Shown here piece by piece: positions 4,072-34,846 of a stretch of 64,000 nt of DNA; the stretch's first letter is position 1, and every line of letters begins with the position of its first letter. Below the pieces are notes generated by a model that made no database searches, was not told the DNA's origin, and saw only the letters and a list, made by a program, of their open reading frames with translations. The stretch is from Planctomycetota bacterium (GTDB lineage: Bacteria > Planctomycetota > Planctomycetia > Gemmatales > Gemmataceae), in the NCBI GenBank assembly GCA_029777335.1, contig JAKOSN010000169.1, positions 1-64,000 on the forward strand, written 5' to 3'. The position numbers were made by a program, and so were the translations under genes.

Positions 4072-5400
4072 TTAGCGCACCGCTTCGAGCGGACGCAGGC
4101 GCATCGCCGAGAGCGCTGGAATAAATCCGCCCACACAGCCCATGCCGAGTGAAAAGAGCAATCCGGTGAGCAGAATGTCGGCATCGACAATCAACTTGAG
4201 CACCACGCTCTTGCCGCCACCCTGTCCCCCGCTGATGATGCTGCTCGCCGTCCAACCATTGGCCAGCGAACCAATCGCACAGCCGAGCAGTCCGCCGACG
4301 AGGGCGATCAGCAGCGATTCCAGAAAGAACGAGACGAGGATCTGCCAGCGGGCAAATCCAATGATGCGCATCACGCCGATGTCACGAGTACGCTGACTGA
4401 TGGCGGCAAACATGGTGTTCATCACGCCAAAGACTCCGCCGACCGCCATGATGATGGCCACCACGATGATGGCTCCGAGAAACTGCTGATTGGTGGTGTT
4501 CAACTTCTCGTAGTAGTCGGTCTCTACCTGGGCCTGGACCGCCGATTTTTTGAAGTTTGCGGTCAGATCCTGGGCCGTCTCGCGGGCAGCGGTGGCATCG
4601 GCGGTTCGCAGGACCACGGTGGTGTAGTTCTCCTTGCCGAACATCGGCCCGACAATCTGCCGCTTGGCCCAGATTTCTGAATCAAAGGTCGATCCGCTCG
4701 ATTGGAGAATGCCAACCACCACCCACTTGCGCGGCCCGACCTCGAAGAATTCGCCCACATGGAGCGAATCGCGGCCCTGATCCTTCCCTAACTCGCGTGC
4801 AATCCCTTCGCCAAGCACCGCCTGTATCGCCTGTTCACCGCCCACGTCGCCCCTGAGCGGCTGTACCCCGGCCGCCGAGAACCACGAGCCCCCCGGATGA
4901 AGCGGCAAGTTGTGCACTGCACCCGCGCGGGCCGGATCGTCCAGCCCACGAACCTGAAGGAAGCGGCGCTTGCGCTTGCCATCCCCGGCATTGGGGATCG
5001 GCTGATTAACGACAATGTAGACCTCCCAACTTGCCAGAGGACGTTCCTTGTCGTCGCGTAAGACCCCCGGATGCCGTTCCACATCGCTGGTGTCGCGATA
5101 GCCGAGATTGCTGAATAGTTCGTCGGTGGCGCCGTCAGCGAGAACGACAACATTGCCCGGTTGCCCACTCCCCAGCGTTAACCGATACATGCCATTGACA
5201 AAGGCGAGCATCACGGTCATGAGCGCCACCACCAGGGTGAACGCCAGCGCGGTCATCAAGGTAATGCGCCAGCGAACCAGGAGGTTGCGCACATTGTAAC
5301 TGATGGGAACCTTGCCCACGATGGCCAGCAGAACCATCAGCCCGGCAAAGAAGCCGAGCGGACCAAACAGCCTGGGAGAGATGGAGAAGGTTTCCGTCAT
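4072..5400 (-). CDS. ABC transporter permease, FtsX/MacB family
   Basis: A protein of 442 aa with the FtsX-type layout: N-terminal membrane segments (about 12-28 and 47-70), a long extracytoplasmic domain (about 75-305), then three C-terminal helices (about 310-440) that end ALSAMRLRPLEAVR, the typical terminal motif. Residues such as TRDIGVMRIIGF match the conserved cytoplasmic coupling region. It is the last gene of the TetR-controlled operon, 18 bases after the first permease gene, so the two permeases probably pair as a heterodimer with the ATPase at 6826-7527. Exported substrate unknown; families of this type extract lipids or lipoproteins, or export drugs. Confidence 0.9.
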   Translation of the reverse strand: MTETFSISPRLFGPLGFFAGLMVLLAIVGKVPISYNVRNLLVRWRITLMTALAFTLVVALMTVMLAFVNGMYRLTLGSGQPGNVVVLADGATDELFSNLGYRDTSDVERHPGVLRDDKERPLASWEVYIVVNQPIPNAGDGKRKRRFLQVRGLDDPARAGAVHNLPLHPGGSWFSAAGVQPLRGDVGGEQAIQAVLGEGIARELGKDQGRDSLHVGEFFEVGPRKWVVVGILQSSGSTFDSEIWAKRQIVGPMFGKENYTTVVLRTADATAARETAQDLTANFKKSAVQAQVETDYYEKLNTTNQQFLGAIIVVAIIMAVGGVFGVMNTMFAAISQRTRDIGVMRIIGFARWQILVSFFLESLLIALVGGLLGCAIGSLANGWTASSIISGGQGGGKSVVLKLIVDADILLTGLLFSLGMGCVGGFIPALSAMRLRPLEAVR

Positions 5401-5418
5401 GGTCTGGCTTCTGCTCGC

Positions 5419-6786
5419 TCAGGAGATCTTGCTAAAGACGTCCGAAACCTTGACAGTGCGCGCCGACCAGGCCGGGAAGAAACTTCCGGCGACGGCGGTC
5501 CCAATGCCGATCATCGGTCCCCACCACAACGCGTCTTCCGGGATGAGAAAGGCGGGGAAGAAGGCGATCGGGAATTTCAAGCCACCCGCCACCTGGTTAA
5601 TCAGCACATAGGTGGCCCCAGAACTGAACGCTCCGCTCAATCCGCCAATCAGGATCGCCTCTCCCAGAACGAGGGCCATGATCTGTCCGGGGCTGAAACC
5701 GAGCACCTTGAGAACCGCCATCTCCACCCGGCGTTCGCGCACGCTAATGCTGATGGCGTTGGCGATCACCAGCGACATCGTGACCAGAATGGAGGGCACA
5801 AGGAGCCAGCGCATCCCCCATAAGAGATCGCGATAGGCGTCCAGAAAGCTGGAGATTCCCGAGGACGCTGTTTCGCACTTGACCGCTGGACTGCTGTACA
5901 AACTCGACGACATGATCTGATCGGCGACGCGCTGGTAAGCGTCGGTGTCCGGCACCCGCAGCCACACCAGGTTGAGACTCTTCATCGTCAAGGGATGGGT
6001 GGGCAGTCCCTTGGCCTTCTGCTTGGCGTTGTAGTCGTCCATGGCATCGTTGAGATAGTCGCGGTTCATGATGGCGCTCTGGTTGTAGCGCCCATCGGGA
6101 AACTCGGCGATGATCTCGACTTCCAGATCGATGTCCTTGTAATTCAGGCTGGTGACCTTGATGCGTTCGCCCACGCGTTTCTTCATCGCGGCCAGGCGAT
6201 CCTTGCCGATGACCACCTTGCGCTTGTCCTTGACCATGACATCGATGGCGTGGTCCAGGTCCGAGCGTTCCTGGAGAGTGAGCTCGTCCAGGCCATCCAT
6301 CATGGTGAGCAGTTTGCGCGGGTCCATGCAGAAGAAGAAGACGGTGTTCTCCCGGGTGCGTTTGCCCGGATCAATGGTGCCGCCGTAGAACTGCCAGGTC
6401 ATGTTGTCGTCCGGCCGGACATCGGTGGGCCGCGCGGCCGCGCCTTCCGAGAGACTGGCGGCATAGGCAAAGGGCATCTGGCTGGGGATTTGCCAGCGTT
6501 CGGTCACAATTGCCTTGAGATCCTTGGCCTTCTCCGAGGTCGCCTTGTCCAGGAAGTACAGGATCGACCAGACGAGAGTCACCACCAGGACCAGCACCAC
6601 CGTGGCCAGGCTGGTGAGAATCGAGCGAAGCAGGTTGCGGCGCAGGCTCTTGAGCATGAACCACATCTGCTTGCGATACACCCCCATGGTGTAGACCACC
6701 AGGAGCGCCAGCATTGCCGCCAGGACGTACAGCGGCTGGCTGGTAAAACGCTCCCACCACAAAGCTCCACGTTCGAGCGGACTCAT
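5419..6786 (-). CDS. ABC transporter permease, FtsX/MacB family
   Basis: A protein of 455 aa with two N-terminal membrane segments (about 18-36 and 52-78), a large extracytoplasmic region (about 80-320) and three C-terminal helices. RERRVEMAVLKVLGFSPGQI is the conserved FtsX-type cytoplasmic loop. It follows the ATPase gene by 39 bases and precedes the second permease by 18, consistent with one transcript. It differs from its partner in sequence, which suggests a heterodimeric transporter rather than a recent duplication. Confidence 0.9.
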   Translation of the reverse strand: MSPLERGALWWERFTSQPLYVLAAMLALLVVYTMGVYRKQMWFMLKSLRRNLLRSILTSLATVVLVLVVTLVWSILYFLDKATSEKAKDLKAIVTERWQIPSQMPFAYAASLSEGAAARPTDVRPDDNMTWQFYGGTIDPGKRTRENTVFFFCMDPRKLLTMMDGLDELTLQERSDLDHAIDVMVKDKRKVVIGKDRLAAMKKRVGERIKVTSLNYKDIDLEVEIIAEFPDGRYNQSAIMNRDYLNDAMDDYNAKQKAKGLPTHPLTMKSLNLVWLRVPDTDAYQRVADQIMSSSLYSSPAVKCETASSGISSFLDAYRDLLWGMRWLLVPSILVTMSLVIANAISISVRERRVEMAVLKVLGFSPGQIMALVLGEAILIGGLSGAFSSGATYVLINQVAGGLKFPIAFFPAFLIPEDALWWGPMIGIGTAVAGSFFPAWSARTVKVSDVFSKIS

Positions 6787-30323: not shown

Positions 30324-31565
30324 CTAGTCCTGCCGTCCTCCGCGCGCATCAAGAAGCCGGTTGAGCCGTTCGAGCATCTCTTCCTCGGCGGCCGGCGACC
30401 AGGTGTACTCGGGGGGAGGTTTGAATCCGCCCTCGGCATTGAAGGCGGCGCTGGGGGCGGGACACAGGGGCAACAACCCCAGCGATTTCCCCTTGAGAGT
30501 GACCTCGAACCCCGTGACCTGTTCCAGGTCGTTGGCATCGAGCGTGCCCGGTGCCACCATCGTCGGCCCATCCGTGATCAGCACCTCCTGTTCAAGCAGG
30601 AGGGGGGGCTGGACCGCCCCGGGGACCTGAGCCGACACCTGCAGCGTGCACAGACCCGCCATCGCTGCCTCGCTGCTGGCAATCAGAAAACACGGTCCAA
30701 CACGTCCCGAGCGTTCTCCGGGGGGCACCTGACGCGCCAGTTGGACTTCGCCCTTGTCGCTCTGGAGGACAAAGCGCGAATCGGAGATGCGCAAGGAACG
30801 CTCAAAATGACGCTGTGAAATTCCCGTCACGCGCTGGCTCGCGAGCACTCGGTCCCCCACGCGCCAGGTGGCCGTCCAGGTGCCCAGGTGGCGCGGGTAT
30901 TTGCGAGGTACTACCGTGATTAGCGCCTGGCGGCTCACCATCTGCGAACTGGACAGCCGCACCGGCACCAGTTGGGTGGTTCCGCTGCGCTCACAGCGAA
31001 ATTCGACATGAAGATCCATGTCCGCCAGGGGGGCCAGACTGGTTGGGCTGGTCAGGACTGCACTGGCGAGCAGGCCACGACACTGGTTGGAGACAAACGT
31101 CTGGCAAGCCACGCTCTCCTGCCCCAGCCGAACCAGGAGCGTGGGCATCTGGAGTTTGAGCTGATCGAGAAACTCGTCGCGGGGGAGGGTGGGGATGACA
31201 ATCTGCCCCATGGCCCTGGTGCGCCAGGAGAGGTCGTAGGTGGTCGCGGTGGAGGGCGGGGGCAGACGAAAACGAACACAATAGCGATCTTCGTTCTCAA
31301 GTTTGCGGAGGGAATCCGCCCCGATCGGTTCGCCCTCGCCTTGCTGCAGATGAAAGTCGTTTTTGCGACGCATCACCGCCATGGGCAAGCGCAGATTGGC
31401 CTCGATCAGCAGCGTTTCCGCATTCCAGGGCACAGGCTGATCGTGCACCACCAGGCCTGCCTTCTCATAGCTGAAGTGCAGAGCCTGGGGCTGAAAACCA
31501 ATCCGGTAGGTGGGCCAGAGGTCATTCATCAGCCAGTCGTGCCAGCGCTTGATCCAGGGCCACAT
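30324..31565 (-). CDS. 413-aa protein of the ubiquitin-like cassette, ending ARGG-RQD
   Basis: A protein of 413 aa with no family I recognise. The start at 31565 is fixed by a consensus GGAGGA; it overlaps the end of the E1-like gene by 44 bases, so translation is coupled. No signal peptide or membrane helix is seen. The sequence is beta-rich from about 15 to 360 (LVVHDQPVPW, LLIEANLRLP, VRFRLPPP, MDLHVEFRCERS), suggesting several sandwich or grasp-like domains, then a Pro-rich stretch and a helical tail. The last residues are LLDARGGRQD: a Gly-Gly with a three-residue extension, as in ubiquitin-like precursors that need trimming. Candidate modifier, substrate or adaptor; unproven. Confidence 0.8.
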   Translation of the reverse strand: MWPWIKRWHDWLMNDLWPTYRIGFQPQALHFSYEKAGLVVHDQPVPWNAETLLIEANLRLPMAVMRRKNDFHLQQGEGEPIGADSLRKLENEDRYCVRFRLPPPSTATTYDLSWRTRAMGQIVIPTLPRDEFLDQLKLQMPTLLVRLGQESVACQTFVSNQCRGLLASAVLTSPTSLAPLADMDLHVEFRCERSGTTQLVPVRLSSSQMVSRQALITVVPRKYPRHLGTWTATWRVGDRVLASQRVTGISQRHFERSLRISDSRFVLQSDKGEVQLARQVPPGERSGRVGPCFLIASSEAAMAGLCTLQVSAQVPGAVQPPLLLEQEVLITDGPTMVAPGTLDANDLEQVTGFEVTLKGKSLGLLPLCPAPSAAFNAEGGFKPPPEYTWSPAAEEEMLERLNRLLDARGGRQD

Positions 31566-32340
31566 CGAGTTCCTCCGAAGACGCGGCTGCCTTCCCTGGT
31601 TGACAGATCAAACAGGTGGGCGAGCGGTTGACCCGAAGGCGATAGGTCCGATAGGCCTCCTCGAACACTTCCGGCACGCGGTGCAGCGTGAAGAGCAGGC
31701 TGGTGAACCCCGGCTGGTAGGCCGAGCCCTGCTCCAGCAACTGCAGAGTCACGTGCGCGTGCAGCGACGCAATCGTATGAATGGCGGTGATGCTTGCCGG
31801 AACGGTGGTCTCCGCTACGGGGCCGCCCGGGTTCGAATAATCCGGAGCCACCGGCTTCTCCACGGTGACACTGCGTTGCAGATGACTGGCGACACATCCA
31901 TAGCACGGCCCGCCTGGCACAAACCAGTGGACAAAGCCGCCAATTCCCCCACTGAGAACCTCTCCGAGGGTCCAGGGCTTTCCGTGGCGGCGCATCAGGG
32001 CGTCCCAGTGGTACTTCGCCGGTTCATTGTCGACCGCACAGATCCCGAGCGTGCAGGTGCGGACGACTTCTTCCAGCGCGGGTTGAGCCTCGGGGGCCAT
32101 CAGATCGCAGAGCATCACCTGGACGTGCACATCGGGGCGCCGATCGAGGAGCCATTGTCGGGCCACCTCGGCCTTCGCCTCGCCGATGGCACTGATGGCG
32201 AAAAGATGCCGCTCCACATTGTGCGGTTTGTACAGATCCGGCTCGATCAGAGTGATCTGGGTAATGCGCGGGTCGCGGCTGACCATGTCCAGCACCGGCA
32301 TCCCGCCGCTCCCGGCTCCCACCTGGATCAGATGTGCCAT
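31522..32340 (-). CDS. E1-like ThiF-family adenylating enzyme
   Basis: A protein of 272 aa with the Rossmann-type E1 core: nucleotide loop GAGSGG (8-13), acidic IEPD (32-35), Asn41 and Arg44 (HNVERHLF), and Lys56 in GEAKAEVA. Two CxxC pairs (Cys146/Cys149 and Cys243/Cys246) form the zinc site seen in MoeB/ThiF/E1 enzymes. It would adenylate the C-terminal glycine of a ubiquitin-like partner. I cannot single out a catalytic thiol-transfer Cys. The start has a clear GGGAGG; it follows the E2-like gene by 19 bases. Confidence 0.88.
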   Translation of the reverse strand: MAHLIQVGAGSGGMPVLDMVSRDPRITQITLIEPDLYKPHNVERHLFAISAIGEAKAEVARQWLLDRRPDVHVQVMLCDLMAPEAQPALEEVVRTCTLGICAVDNEPAKYHWDALMRRHGKPWTLGEVLSGGIGGFVHWFVPGGPCYGCVASHLQRSVTVEKPVAPDYSNPGGPVAETTVPASITAIHTIASLHAHVTLQLLEQGSAYQPGFTSLLFTLHRVPEVFEEAYRTYRLRVNRSPTCLICQPGKAAASSEELDVALDQALARLADE

Positions 32341-32359
32341 CGGTTCCCTCCCGGAGAAG

Positions 32360-32791
32360 TTACTTGGCCTCGGGCAGGGGCCATTCGCCTGTTTCGTGCC
32401 AGACCTCGTAGCAAGCCAGCCAGCGCCAGGCTGCCTGGATGGCGAACACGCAGGTGAAACGGGCGGGATCCCAGCGACTGCTGGCGCGGGTGGAACCCTG
32501 TCGCCATAAACAAAGTGTCTGTCCTTCGAGCAGGTGCGGGCAGTGGTTGAGCGGGGTCACCACGCGCGTCTCGGGGGGGACGGTGGGATAGCTCGCCGGC
32601 AACCGGGTCTCCAGCTCGTAGACATTGTGACACGGTTTGAGGCGGTAGCGCAGCACCAGCGCTCCGTTCTGCTTGCTGATACGGATCTTGTAGGCGTCGG
32701 CACGAGCTTCGTTGTAGCGTTCGATGACCGGAATCTCGATGCTGAGCAGCCGACGTTTTCCGGTTTCGCTATCGAGCAGACCCATAGGCAT
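32360..32791 (-). CDS. E2-like ubiquitin-conjugating-fold protein
   Basis: A protein of 143 aa (137 aa if the second ATG at 32785 is used). The layout matches the UBC fold: N-terminal helix, meander ending ETRLPASYPTVPPETRVV (the YPxxPP turn), then NHCPHLLEGQTLCLW, where Cys94 occupies the position of the E2 catalytic cysteine after an HPN-like segment, then Trp-rich C-terminal helices (AIQAAWRWLACYEVW). It should accept the activated modifier from the E1 protein. Neither start has a Shine-Dalgarno; an 11-bp hairpin lies just upstream. Confidence 0.82.
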   Translation of the reverse strand: MPMGLLDSETGKRRLLSIEIPVIERYNEARADAYKIRISKQNGALVLRYRLKPCHNVYELETRLPASYPTVPPETRVVTPLNHCPHLLEGQTLCLWRQGSTRASSRWDPARFTCVFAIQAAWRWLACYEVWHETGEWPLPEAK

Positions 32792-32809
32792 ACTTCGGGC
32801 ACCCAGCGG

Positions 32810-32839
32810 TGAGCGGTGCGCCCCAGAGCGCACCGCTCA
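32810..32839 (-). other. Intra-operon hairpin before the E2-like gene
   Basis: A perfect 11-bp inverted repeat (TGAGCGGTGCG 32810-32820 with CGCACCGCTCA 32829-32839) and 8-base loop lies between the stop of the 60-aa gene and the E2-like start. There is no following U-run, so it is not a standard terminator. It may stabilise an mRNA end or tune E2 translation. Confidence 0.75.
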
Positions 32840-32850
32840 ACCGGGACAGT

Positions 32851-33033
32851 TCAATAGTGACAGGGGACAGACTTGATTGCGGAGATCACTTCCTCGTCGG
32901 TCACCTCTTCGGCGCTCCCCAGAAAACTGGTGTCACGACGATCCATGAGGATGGCGCGATCACTTTCGGCATTGCCGCGCAAGGCGTTGACCAGCTGACG
33001 GCGTTCCGCATCGTTCAGAGGACGGAAATCCAT
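32851..33033 (-). CDS. 60-aa protein of the ubiquitin-like cassette
   Basis: A protein of 60 aa whose reality is supported by an ideal Shine-Dalgarno (AAGGAG, 7-base spacing) and its place inside the cassette between the JAMM and E2-like genes. The N-terminal third is helical and charged (DFRPLNDAERRQLVNAL); the C-terminus (SAEEVTDEEVISAIKSV) also looks helical and ends PCHY. It is too short and too helical to be a standard beta-grasp modifier and has no terminal Gly-Gly. Unknown; candidates are a regulator, a leader-type substrate or an adaptor. Confidence 0.75.
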   Translation of the reverse strand: MDFRPLNDAERRQLVNALRGNAESDRAILMDRRDTSFLGSAEEVTDEEVISAIKSVPCHY

Positions 33034-33095
33034 CGTCGAACTCCTTCGTGAAAGAAAAAAGACCTGCAACTCTGTCCGGGCAGAGCATGCGTGTG

Positions 33096-34073
33096 TCAGG
33101 CCTGGGCGGCCAGCTCCGCTAGCAGGAGATAGACTGCCTGATCGAGCATGGCAGACGGGCAGTCCACAGCGAACACATCTCCGTCGCGGACCACAAAATA
33201 ACGCACTTCCTTGGGCAAGAGCAGCACGCGCAGTGCCGTTCCCGGCTCCGCCAGAGGAACGGTCAGCAGCAACGCCTGACCTCCGCCACTGTCCACCACG
33301 TCACCTTTCATCCCGACCTGCTGGCGATAGAGCCGATCGAGACGATCTGCATGCGCTTCCACAATCGGCCAGACCCCATGCAGGGGCAGCGCCAGGTCCG
33401 GACCGAGTGTCCATTCCACCGGAATCTTGCGATAGGCACGATCTCCCTCCCCCAGGGCATACCAGCAAAAGCACAGCGACCCGAGCACCTGCATGTGCGG
33501 ATGTGGCTGCTGCACGAAGACCGTATCGCCATTCAGCCGGGGATCCGCGGTCCCAATCCCGAACACCCCTTCGCGACCGCGCAGATGCCTTACCCAGAGA
33601 CTGTCTCCCTCGTAGTCCCCCGAACTCGGATGGCGCAGCGTACCCGGATGGGTGTGCACCACGCCGAGGATGGTTAACCGGCGATCGCGCTGGCGGATCA
33701 GGCGACTGCCCAGCGCCTGGGCGGTGGTATTGAACTGCACATGAGCCACTCCCGCATCGCGTTCGGCACCCGCGGGCAAGGTGGCCAGGATGATCGCCTC
33801 GTCGTGTTCGCGTAGACCAAGCAAGATCCAGCCGGTTTCCTCATCGCCGCGCTCGGCGGCCCGATGGGCGGTATATTCCTCGAACAACGTGTGCCCCACG
33901 CCATCGGTCAGGATAACACGCCGCAGGGGGGCATACGGCCCAGGGGTCGGTCCCGGGGGTTCCGGGGGCGACTCCCCGTGCGCCGGGAGTCCGAACAGAA
34001 ACTGGTGCAGGGCTGTCTGGAGTTGCCTGACCAGCAAGGATAAGGGGTGGTGTTTTCTGCCTCGTGCTGGCAT
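33096..34073 (-). CDS. JAMM (MPN+) metalloprotease, deubiquitinase-like
   Basis: A protein of 325 aa. A Pro-rich N-terminus (about 30-48) precedes a complete JAMM site at about 65-200: Glu79 (EETGWILLG), His140 and His142 (VVHTHP), Ser150 and Asp153 (SSGD), with the same His-Pro-to-Ser spacing as in AMSH-type peptidases. A further 120 residues follow, beta-rich with VRYFVVRDGDVFAVDC. In cassettes with E1 and E2 proteins this enzyme trims modifier precursors or removes them from targets. It is upstream of the 60-aa gene by 62 bases; Shine-Dalgarno is weak (GGAG two bases before ATG). Confidence 0.88.
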   Translation of the reverse strand: MPARGRKHHPLSLLVRQLQTALHQFLFGLPAHGESPPEPPGPTPGPYAPLRRVILTDGVGHTLFEEYTAHRAAERGDEETGWILLGLREHDEAIILATLPAGAERDAGVAHVQFNTTAQALGSRLIRQRDRRLTILGVVHTHPGTLRHPSSGDYEGDSLWVRHLRGREGVFGIGTADPRLNGDTVFVQQPHPHMQVLGSLCFCWYALGEGDRAYRKIPVEWTLGPDLALPLHGVWPIVEAHADRLDRLYRQQVGMKGDVVDSGGGQALLLTVPLAEPGTALRVLLLPKEVRYFVVRDGDVFAVDCPSAMLDQAVYLLLAELAAQA

Positions 34074-34342
34074 TACTCCACCGTGGGGTCAATTCCGTCG
34101 GCTTCCTGAGAACACCACCTCTCTCACATCATACCCAGATGGCGCAGGCGAGTCAAAAGATCCCTGCCCATGAGTCGCGCGCGCTCGTCCCAATCCGGCG
34201 TTTGCCCTTCCCCGCTCTGGGCCCTGGTTGTCGGGTCGCACTGCACCGGTTGCCTGCGGTGCGGCGCCAAACGCTCCGTTTGCAGGCCGCTGCACGAGAA
34301 TTTTTCTCTATTGAGGATCTTCGATATGGTTTTTGAAGAGGC

Positions 34343-34846
34343 TCAGACCACCCCATGGACCAGCGCGGCGGCGAGGAGCACCATGCGCACAAAGGGACTC
34401 GGCGCCTGTTCGGTGAAACGCAGCCAGTGTCCCTCGGCGGCGATGTGCACCCGGGCCAGTTCGCCCTGTTCCGCGCTGCCGATGACGCCGGATTTTCGAT
34501 CCCCGGACCAGCGCCATTTCCCCATCGGGCGGTCGTAGGGATCGAGCAAGAGACTGCCGTGCACACGCCCCACCGTTTCGCCCTCGGCATCGCACACTTC
34601 CCAGCTGGGGCGCCAGTTCCAGCCCTTGTGCAGCGACATCAACAAGGGTTCGTCGTCCATCTCGTGAACGGTAAGGACCGGACGCTCCACGAGTCGTTGC
34701 AGCCACGATTGGTCGGGGGTGGGCTGCCAGTGGGCAAAGCCAAGCGTGGGCCCCGCGTCCTCCGCATCAATGAAGATGCGCGGGGCGTGCCCCTCGCCAG
34801 CGGGGTTACTCCAGGGACGCAACACAAGGACCGATTGCTCAAGCAT
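34343..34846 (-). CDS. 167-aa protein, possible LURP-one/tubby-like fold
   Basis: A protein of 167 aa, first gene of the cassette. Strand-rich, with WRPSWEVCDAEGETVGRVHGSLL, a pattern of the kind seen in LURP-one/scramblase/tubby C-terminal folds (a residue about D-x-x-G-x-x-V-G), and a final hydrophobic helix (MVLLAAALVHGVV) where those families have theirs. This family call is by eye and weak. The start at 34846 has AGG six bases before it; the frame remains open to 34930. It is separated from the JAMM gene by 269 bases that hold no convincing gene. Confidence 0.55.
   Translation of the reverse strand: MLEQSVLVLRPWSNPAGEGHAPRIFIDAEDAGPTLGFAHWQPTPDQSWLQRLVERPVLTVHEMDDEPLLMSLHKGWNWRPSWEVCDAEGETVGRVHGSLLLDPYDRPMGKWRWSGDRKSGVIGSAEQGELARVHIAAEGHWLRFTEQAPSPFVRMVLLAAALVHGVV

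What the first reader, a model, noticed from the sequence alone, without database searches (positions are those of the whole stretch)
30324..34846. Compact ubiquitin-like conjugation cassette with no recognisable modifier
Six same-strand genes encode a JAMM peptidase (complete E, HxH, S, D site), an E2-like protein with Cys94 in the expected place, and an E1-like ThiF protein with nucleotide loop and zinc cysteines, plus three proteins I cannot place in a known cassette. Related bacterial E1-E2-JAB operons exist (Bil/Bub-type and others described by comparative genomics), but those carry an evident beta-grasp modifier. Here none is evident, so either the modifier is highly diverged or the system conjugates something different. 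Tight spacing (19-bp gap and 44-bp overlap around the E1 gene) and a terminator just upstream argue for one functional unit.
Basis: partly seen in the sequence, partly recalled or inferred. Interest (0 to 1): 0.92.

Follow-up and report, generated by a model that had tools for sequence, protein, structure and literature searches.

The report
Protein-tagging cassette with a non-ubiquitin tag
A group of planctomycete bacteria and some of their viruses carry a ubiquitin-style enzyme set (or, in the viruses, only its small partner) whose likely tag is a 60-residue protein that does not look like ubiquitin and ends in histidine-tyrosine, which would be a new kind of protein modifier if biochemistry confirms it.

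Summary
A minus-strand cassette at 30324-34073 encodes JAMM, a 60-aa protein (s60), an E2 with canonical active-site spacing, a single-domain ThiF/E1, and a three-Ig-domain protein. The sixth gene (34343-34846) is not part of it, and the claimed upstream terminator was not found.

The cassette is a stable trait of the order Gemmatales. s60 and E2 occur in exactly the same 70 of 149 genomes and the Ig protein in 69 of them; JAMM occurs in 52, only inside that set. In all 54 loci with s60 in the neighbourhood survey the order is s60-E2-E1-Ig.

The 'missing modifier' is most likely s60. It is the most tightly length-constrained product and carries SVPxHY at its end in every genome. It is predicted as alpha-beta-beta-alpha, not beta-grasp. 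Eleven genomes add 1-6 residues after HY, and all carry JAMM; all 18 JAMM-less genomes stop exactly at HY. At least five phage contigs, one a 595-kb huge phage, carry s60 with no E2 found and the same C-terminus, as expected of a stand-alone substrate.

Conjugation is inferred, not shown. Activating a C-terminal Tyr would be unusual, and the E1 has no conserved crossover-loop cysteine. The nearest precedent is type II CBASS, which conjugates a non-beta-grasp protein.

The parts
33096..34073 (-). JAMM/MPN+ metallopeptidase (325 aa), E-HxH-S-D site plus a C-terminal extension; predicted to mature and/or remove s60
   Evidence: Pfam Prok-JAB 2.2e-8; E78/E79, H140, H142, S150, D153 invariant in 19 relatives; present in 52 of the 70 cassette genomes and in none without the cassette
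32851..33033 (-). s60, 60-aa candidate modifier with C-terminus ...AIKSVPCHY
   Evidence: 65% mean column identity over 56 sequences; pN/pS 0.31 with pS near saturation; same 70 genomes as E2; AF2 alpha-beta-beta-alpha, pLDDT 80, pTM 0.47
32854..32871 (-). Codons of the SVPCHY C-terminal motif of s60
   Evidence: S55, V56, P57, H59, Y60 invariant in 56 sequences, with SVPxHY kept in five phage copies
32360..32785 (-). E2-like (UBC) protein, 141 aa, Cys92
   Evidence: PADLOC E2 1.8e-11; C82-P83-H84-x7-C92 invariant in 21 relatives; C92 aligns with the ICL cysteine position of UFC1 in a weak match (E 0.039)
31522..32340 (-). E1-like ThiF adenylation protein, 272 aa, CxxC...CxxC zinc site, no conserved crossover-loop cysteine
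   Evidence: Pfam ThiF 2e-17; G8/G10/G12/G13, D35, N41, R44, K56, D104 and C146/C149/C243/C246 invariant in 24 relatives; nearest solved relatives UBA5 1e-9 and MccB 7e-8; Cys census
30324..31565 (-). 413-aa protein: N-terminal helix, three Ig-like beta-sandwich domains, C-terminal helix; overlaps the E1 gene by 44 nt; predicted adaptor/scaffold
   Evidence: AF2 pLDDT 89, pTM 0.75; Foldseek hits to tandem Ig/filamin domains, best E 1e-4; 69 of the 70 s60 genomes
34128..34156 (-). Sigma-70-like promoter match (TTGACT-17-TATGAT) upstream of JAMM; possible start of the operon
   Evidence: 10 of 12 matches; consensus match only (0.6 expected by chance in the region)

Best explanation
The cassette is a chromosomal, vertically inherited conjugation system of Gemmatales in which s60 is the modifier. 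E1 adenylates the C-terminal tyrosine of s60 (inferred). Because E1 has no conserved transthiolation cysteine, the adenylate is passed directly, or through another residue, to E2 Cys92, which transfers s60 to an amine on a target (inferred). JAMM trims residues beyond HY where the gene encodes them and/or removes s60 from targets (inferred; supported by the tail pattern). The Ig-like protein, translationally coupled to E1, is an obligatory adaptor, target or E3-like scaffold (inferred). Phages carrying s60 alone feed their own modifier, or a decoy, into the host's enzymes (inferred). Shown by computation: intact E1, E2 and JAMM active sites, strict co-occurrence, conserved order, fixed s60 C-terminus, predicted non-beta-grasp fold, and phage copies without E2.
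For: (1) s60 and E2 sets identical (70 of 70) and Ig protein 69 of 70 over 149 genomes. (2) All 54 s60 loci read s60-E2-E1-Ig, 37 of them with JAMM directly before s60; in Limnoglobus roseus the split is JAMM-s60-E2 versus E1-Ig. (3) s60 and E2 are the only cassette proteins with fixed C-termini. (4) Tails after HY: 11 of 11 tailed genomes have JAMM, 18 of 18 JAMM-less genomes have none. (5) Phage-borne s60 without E2 in viral contigs; residues 47-60 are 86-100% identical to the nearest host copy while the middle part falls to 32-73%. (6) E1 relatives UBA5 and MccB both act on a polypeptide C-terminus (general knowledge). (7) Precedent: type II CBASS conjugates a non-beta-grasp protein by its C-terminal Gly/Ala, reversed by a JAB (PMC10097602; PMC11153139). 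(8) The three ThiS/MoaD-type genes found in this genome sit in other contexts: beside a threonine-synthase-like gene, fused to ThiG, and beside MoeB.
Against: No biochemistry. A bulky C-terminal Tyr is unusual for an E1: in CBASS replacing the terminal Gly by Ser, Val, Arg or Trp abolished conjugation (PMC10097602). E1 lacks a conserved crossover-loop Cys. The tail/JAMM pattern gives p=0.03 without regard to phylogeny and only 4 changes of each trait on the tree, so it has no power after correction. JAMM is dispensable in 18 genomes. s60 was not docked with E1 or E2. The absence of enzymes in the IMG/VR contigs may reflect fragments; the 595-kb phage has a distant ThiF and JAMM pair of its own elsewhere.
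Confidence: 0.55

Rival explanations
1. s60 is a regulatory or assembly subunit of the E1-E2 complex, docking by its C-terminal HY, and the true modifier is a beta-grasp protein encoded elsewhere.
For: s60 has no terminal Gly; the genome has three ThiS-family genes; E1 and the Ig protein can sit apart from s60 and E2.
Against: The three ThiS-family genes sit in other recognisable contexts, though PF02597 would miss very diverged beta-grasp proteins. Phages carry s60 without E2, odd for a bare subunit. A fixed terminal residue and tails limited to JAMM-bearing genomes are not predicted by docking alone.
Confidence: 0.22
2. A ribosomal-peptide pathway: s60 is a precursor whose C-terminal residues (PCHY) are activated by the ThiF protein and turned into a small molecule or redox cofactor, as MccB does with a heptapeptide, or as PQQ and mycofactocin arise from a conserved tyrosine.
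For: MccB is among the nearest solved relatives of E1; ThiF-like enzymes make several RiPPs (PMC12250964); the C-terminal Tyr is invariant.
Against: The N-terminal part is also conserved and a helix-strand-strand-helix fold is predicted; an intact E2 always accompanies s60 in the bacteria; the recurrent neighbours are CoaD, an M50 protease and an aminotransferase-like gene that look like plain synteny. Phages would gain little from a lone precursor.
Confidence: 0.1
3. A CBASS-like arrangement in which E1-E2 conjugate another cassette protein (for example the Ig-like protein) and s60 regulates or inhibits the process; phage s60 would then be an anti-defence protein.
For: Bacterial E1-E2-JAB systems with known function are largely antiphage (general knowledge); PADLOC E2 and E1-E2 models match; phages carry s60.
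Against: The C-termini of the Ig protein and JAMM are not conserved; the set is a genus-stable, apparently vertically inherited trait, not scattered as defence islands are; no cyclase or effector in the cassette.
Confidence: 0.1

Closest known systems
Type II CBASS Cap2 (E2-E1) / Cap3 (JAB) (PMC10097602, PMC11153139)
   Same: E1, E2 and JAB act on a protein without a beta-grasp fold through its conserved C-terminal residue
   Different: No CD-NTase; E1 and E2 are separate genes; the E1 has no conserved crossover Cys; the candidate modifier is a dedicated 60-aa protein ending in Tyr, not Gly/Ala; stable in one order rather than sporadic
BilABCD (ISG15-like; described in PMC11354881)
   Same: Separate E1, E2 and JAMM genes plus a small-protein gene
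   Different: BilA has two beta-grasp domains and a C-terminal Gly exposed by BilC; BilD has a pseudodimer and a Cys domain. Here no beta-grasp protein and a 272-aa single-domain E1
Iyer et al. 2006 class 6a-6e operons (PMC1779556)
   Same: E1-like, E2-like and JAB combination in one bacterial operon; class 6d has a small protein with a conserved C-terminus
   Different: Those small proteins are predicted beta-grasp with a terminal Gly, spread sporadically; planctomycetes are not named in the text
Pup / UBact (pupylation)
   Same: About 60-aa, non-beta-grasp modifier with a conserved C-terminus (from general knowledge)
   Different: Pup uses PafA (glutamine-synthetase-like) and a C-terminal Gln/Glu, with no E1, E2 or JAMM; s60 ends in Tyr and in the bacteria is always with E2
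MccB / microcin C7 and UBA5 / UFM1
   Same: Nearest solved relatives of the E1: minimal adenylation enzymes acting on a polypeptide C-terminus
   Different: MccB modifies a heptapeptide with AMP; UBA5 uses a beta-grasp modifier and a catalytic Cys

Membership tests
Bacterial E1-E2-JAB conjugation operons (general) | E1-like adenylation domain with nucleotide-binding and catalytic residues | tested here: met
   ThiF 2e-17; GxGSGG, D35, N41, R44, K56, D104 invariant
Bacterial E1-E2-JAB conjugation operons (general) | E2 fold with active-site Cys | tested here: met
   E2 models 1.8e-11, CPH-x7-C92 invariant; fold by profile only, not by structure
Bacterial E1-E2-JAB conjugation operons (general) | JAMM with E, HxH, S, D | tested here: met
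Bacterial E1-E2-JAB conjugation operons (general) | Thioester cysteine in the E1 crossover loop (common, not universal, among E1-like enzymes) | tested here: not met
   Invariant Cys are C101 (beside D104) and the four zinc ligands only
BilABCD | Tandem beta-grasp modifier BilA with C-terminal Gly | tested here: not met
   s60 predicted alpha-beta-beta-alpha; Ig-like protein has no beta-grasp domain; s60 ends HY
Type II CBASS | CD-NTase and effector in the operon | tested here: not met
   No such hit among the cassette proteins and none among the recurrent neighbours identified
Type II CBASS | Conjugated protein with C-terminal Gly or Ala | tested here: not met
   s60 ends in Tyr in most genomes; tails after HY vary
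Pup / UBact | C-terminal Gln or Glu and a PafA-type ligase in the locus | tested here: not met
   C-terminus HY; no such gene in the cassette
s60 as covalent modifier (proposed new family) | ATP-dependent activation and conjugation of s60 | not testable with these tools
   Needs biochemistry
s60 as covalent modifier (proposed new family) | Strict co-occurrence with E2 and constrained C-terminus | tested here: met
   70 of 70 genomes with E2; SVPxHY in all host copies and five phage copies

The most novel reading that the evidence does not exclude
s60 is the first dedicated, non-beta-grasp small modifier of an E1-E2-JAMM pathway. It is activated at a C-terminal tyrosine by an E1 without a transthiolation cysteine, is a core trait of Gemmatales, and is copied alone by their phages, including a huge phage, to hijack or jam the host pathway.
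Probability: 0.4. Interest if true: 0.92.

Novelty: new variant of a known kind. Interest (0 to 1): 0.8.

Why it matters
All dedicated modifiers of E1-E2 pathways known to me are beta-grasp proteins ending in Gly, and the one well-described exception, CBASS, conjugates an enzyme. A small E1-E2 modifier with another fold and a tyrosine end would separate the conjugation chemistry from the ubiquitin fold and widen what E1 enzymes can activate. It is stable in a whole order that includes cultivated strains (Limnoglobus roseus, Zavarzinella formosa), so it may be physiological rather than purely defensive. Phage copies of the tag alone give a direct handle on what the pathway does during infection.

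Tried and rejected
- Gene 34343-34846 as a cassette member: rejected, its relatives lie elsewhere.
- Terminator upstream: not found.
- Beta-grasp domain hidden in the 413-aa protein: rejected, three Ig-like domains.
- Beta-grasp modifier in trans among ThiS-family genes: all three sit in other contexts.
- Other proteins ending VPxHY in the genome: one further DNA match, which read in its frame is preceded by stops and looks like chance; the reversed control pattern gives 5 matches.
- Solved-fold match for s60: none (best E 0.8); the one low-E sequence match covers only a 16-residue stretch.
- Mobile element: no plasmid match for E2; neighbours look like plain synteny.
- s60 elsewhere in Planctomycetota: 0 of 391 further genomes drawn across the phylum.
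- Phylogeny-corrected test of the tail/JAMM pattern: no power.
- Pfam Prok-E2_B over the own genome: no hit anywhere, controls included, so uninformative.
- Junk call: 128 (a wrong reference).
Full report
OBSERVATION. On the minus strand the order is JAMM (34073-33096), a 60-aa gene (s60, 33033-32851), E2 (32785-32360), E1 (32340-31522) and a 413-aa gene (31565-30324). Gaps are 62, 65 and 19 nt, then a 44-nt overlap. JAMM and E1 exceed Pfam cut-offs; E2 is below the Pfam cut-off but clear with bacterial E2 models. s60, the 413-aa protein and the 167-aa upstream protein have no convincing family. The 167-aa gene belongs to a family found in 24 of 95 family genomes at other places, and was not found in the other cassette loci surveyed; I leave it out.

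CONSERVATION. Searches over the same 149 relatives gave the 413-aa protein in 70, s60 in 70 and E2 in 70 genomes plus one weak hit. The s60 and E2 sets are identical; the 413-aa set differs by one genome each way, one of which (G034) is a fragmented assembly with the cassette on a 5-kb contig. JAMM is in 52, all inside the set. All 54 loci in which s60 was found in the neighbourhood survey read s60-E2-E1-413aa, 37 of them with JAMM just before. In Limnoglobus roseus (NZ_CP042425) JAMM-s60-E2 lies far from E1-413aa. All hits lie in the window's family and its sister family; 391 further Planctomycetota genomes have no s60. A scan of 84,980 species' genomes with E2 returned 61 loci; nearly all titles are planctomycete, and the few others are on contigs that coincide with Gemmatales genomes here. 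Presence is nearly constant within genera and the cassette tree groups genera together, which suggests vertical inheritance.

ENZYMES. E2: C82-P83-H84-x7-C92 keeps the HPN-x7-C geometry of eukaryotic E2s (spacing read from the sequence; residues invariant), and C92 falls on the cysteine of the UFC1 'ICL' motif in a weak match. E1: all adenylation residues and two CxxC pairs are invariant, but the only other invariant cysteine, C101, sits beside D104; no cysteine is conserved in the crossover region. The nearest solved relatives are UBA5 and MccB. JAMM: E, HTHPG, S and D invariant.

S60. Sixty residues in nearly all Gemmataceae copies, starting MDFR and ending SVPxHY. pN/pS is 0.31 with synonymous sites near saturation, so it is a protein under purifying selection. 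AlphaFold2 with 56 sequences gives helix-strand-strand-helix at moderate confidence (pLDDT 80, pTM 0.47) and no solved fold resembles it. That is not the beta-grasp topology. Its C-terminus is fixed, unlike those of JAMM, E1 and the 413-aa protein. Eleven genomes carry 1-6 more residues after HY (A, G, AG, AGV, AGI, KL, GR, AVVSGQ); all eleven have JAMM, and all 18 JAMM-less genomes end at HY. This fits maturation by JAMM, as BilC does for BilA (PMC11354881). Fisher p is 0.03 ignoring phylogeny; with only 4 changes of each trait the tree-based test has no power, so this is suggestive only.

PHAGES. s60 relatives occur in the 595-kb phage LR756511.1 (60 aa, 70% identical, ends SVPVHY) and in four IMG/VR contigs of 235, 47, 42 and 33 kb. 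Neighbours on the IMG/VR contigs include RecT, a phage helicase, a Holliday-junction resolvase and homing/HNH endonuclease families. No E2 is present in the LR756511 record or in the 33-, 47- and 235-kb contigs, and the E2 scan of the whole viral collection found only one 9.8-kb contig, which is a host fragment with E2 and E1; for the 42-kb contig I searched only the 12 kb held. The last 14 residues are 86-100% identical to the nearest host sequence while the middle part falls to 32-73%. The contigs may be incomplete. LR756511 has a distant ThiF and a JAMM-like gene about 90 kb from its s60. A phage that keeps only the small protein, and above all its C-terminus, is what one expects if that protein is a substrate of host enzymes, either as a hijacked modifier or a decoy.

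413-AA PROTEIN. AF2 (pLDDT 89, pTM 0.75) shows beta-sandwich domains with N- and C-terminal helices; Foldseek finds tandem Ig and filamin repeats, and the strand pattern fits three Ig-like domains. It overlaps E1 in the window and is present throughout the set, so I propose adaptor, scaffold or target.

MECHANISM. Shown: intact enzyme sites, co-occurrence, order, conserved s60 end, phage copies. Inferred: E1 adenylates the s60 C-terminus, E2 Cys92 carries it, JAMM trims or removes it. The weak points are the terminal Tyr and the missing E1 Cys. In CBASS terminal Ser, Val, Arg or Trp blocked conjugation (PMC10097602), so this E1 would need another C-terminal pocket; MccB shows that the fold can accept a non-Gly end (a heptapeptide ending in Asn; PMC12250964).

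COMPARISON AND NOVELTY. It works like a bacterial E1-E2-JAB system but fails defining features of Bil (beta-grasp BilA), CBASS (CD-NTase, Gly/Ala end) and Pup (PafA, Gln/Glu). I found no description of it in the papers held, but most subscription papers, including the main E1-like superfamily survey, are not held. Verdict: new variant of a known kind, with a realistic chance that s60 founds a new modifier class.

Noticed in passing
LR756511.1 280616-281269 and 282065-282541 (L279:3617-4270 and 5066-5542, minus strand): The 595-kb phage encodes its own ThiF-like protein and a small JAMM-like protein (FIHTHPN...S..D) in one cluster about 90 kb from its s60; whether they act on s60 or on another modifier is unknown.
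   Followed up: partly
L278:6001-6207 (IMG/VR 3300044625_000495) and L267:4001-4189: Two phage s60 copies have tails after HY (ADGARA, GSV); as in host copies, nearly all tails begin with Ala or Gly (KL in one genus).
   Followed up: partly
window 34343-34846: 167-aa protein of an unnamed family present in 24 of 95 family genomes at unrelated places; no Pfam hit.
   Followed up: partly
L164, L200, L206: Public MAG records titled Bacteroidales and Candidatus Kuenenia hold Gemmatales cassettes on contigs shared with Gemmatales genomes here; probably mislabelled or contaminated bins.
   Followed up: no
L264 (IMG/VR 3300047160_030190): A 9.8-kb contig filed as a virus holds s60-E2-E1 and looks like a host fragment.
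   Followed up: partly
L061-L065 downstream of the cassette: The most divergent lineage keeps an M50-type membrane protease gene (opposite strand) and coaD directly downstream of the cassette, as several distant genera do; probably ancestral synteny.
   Followed up: partly
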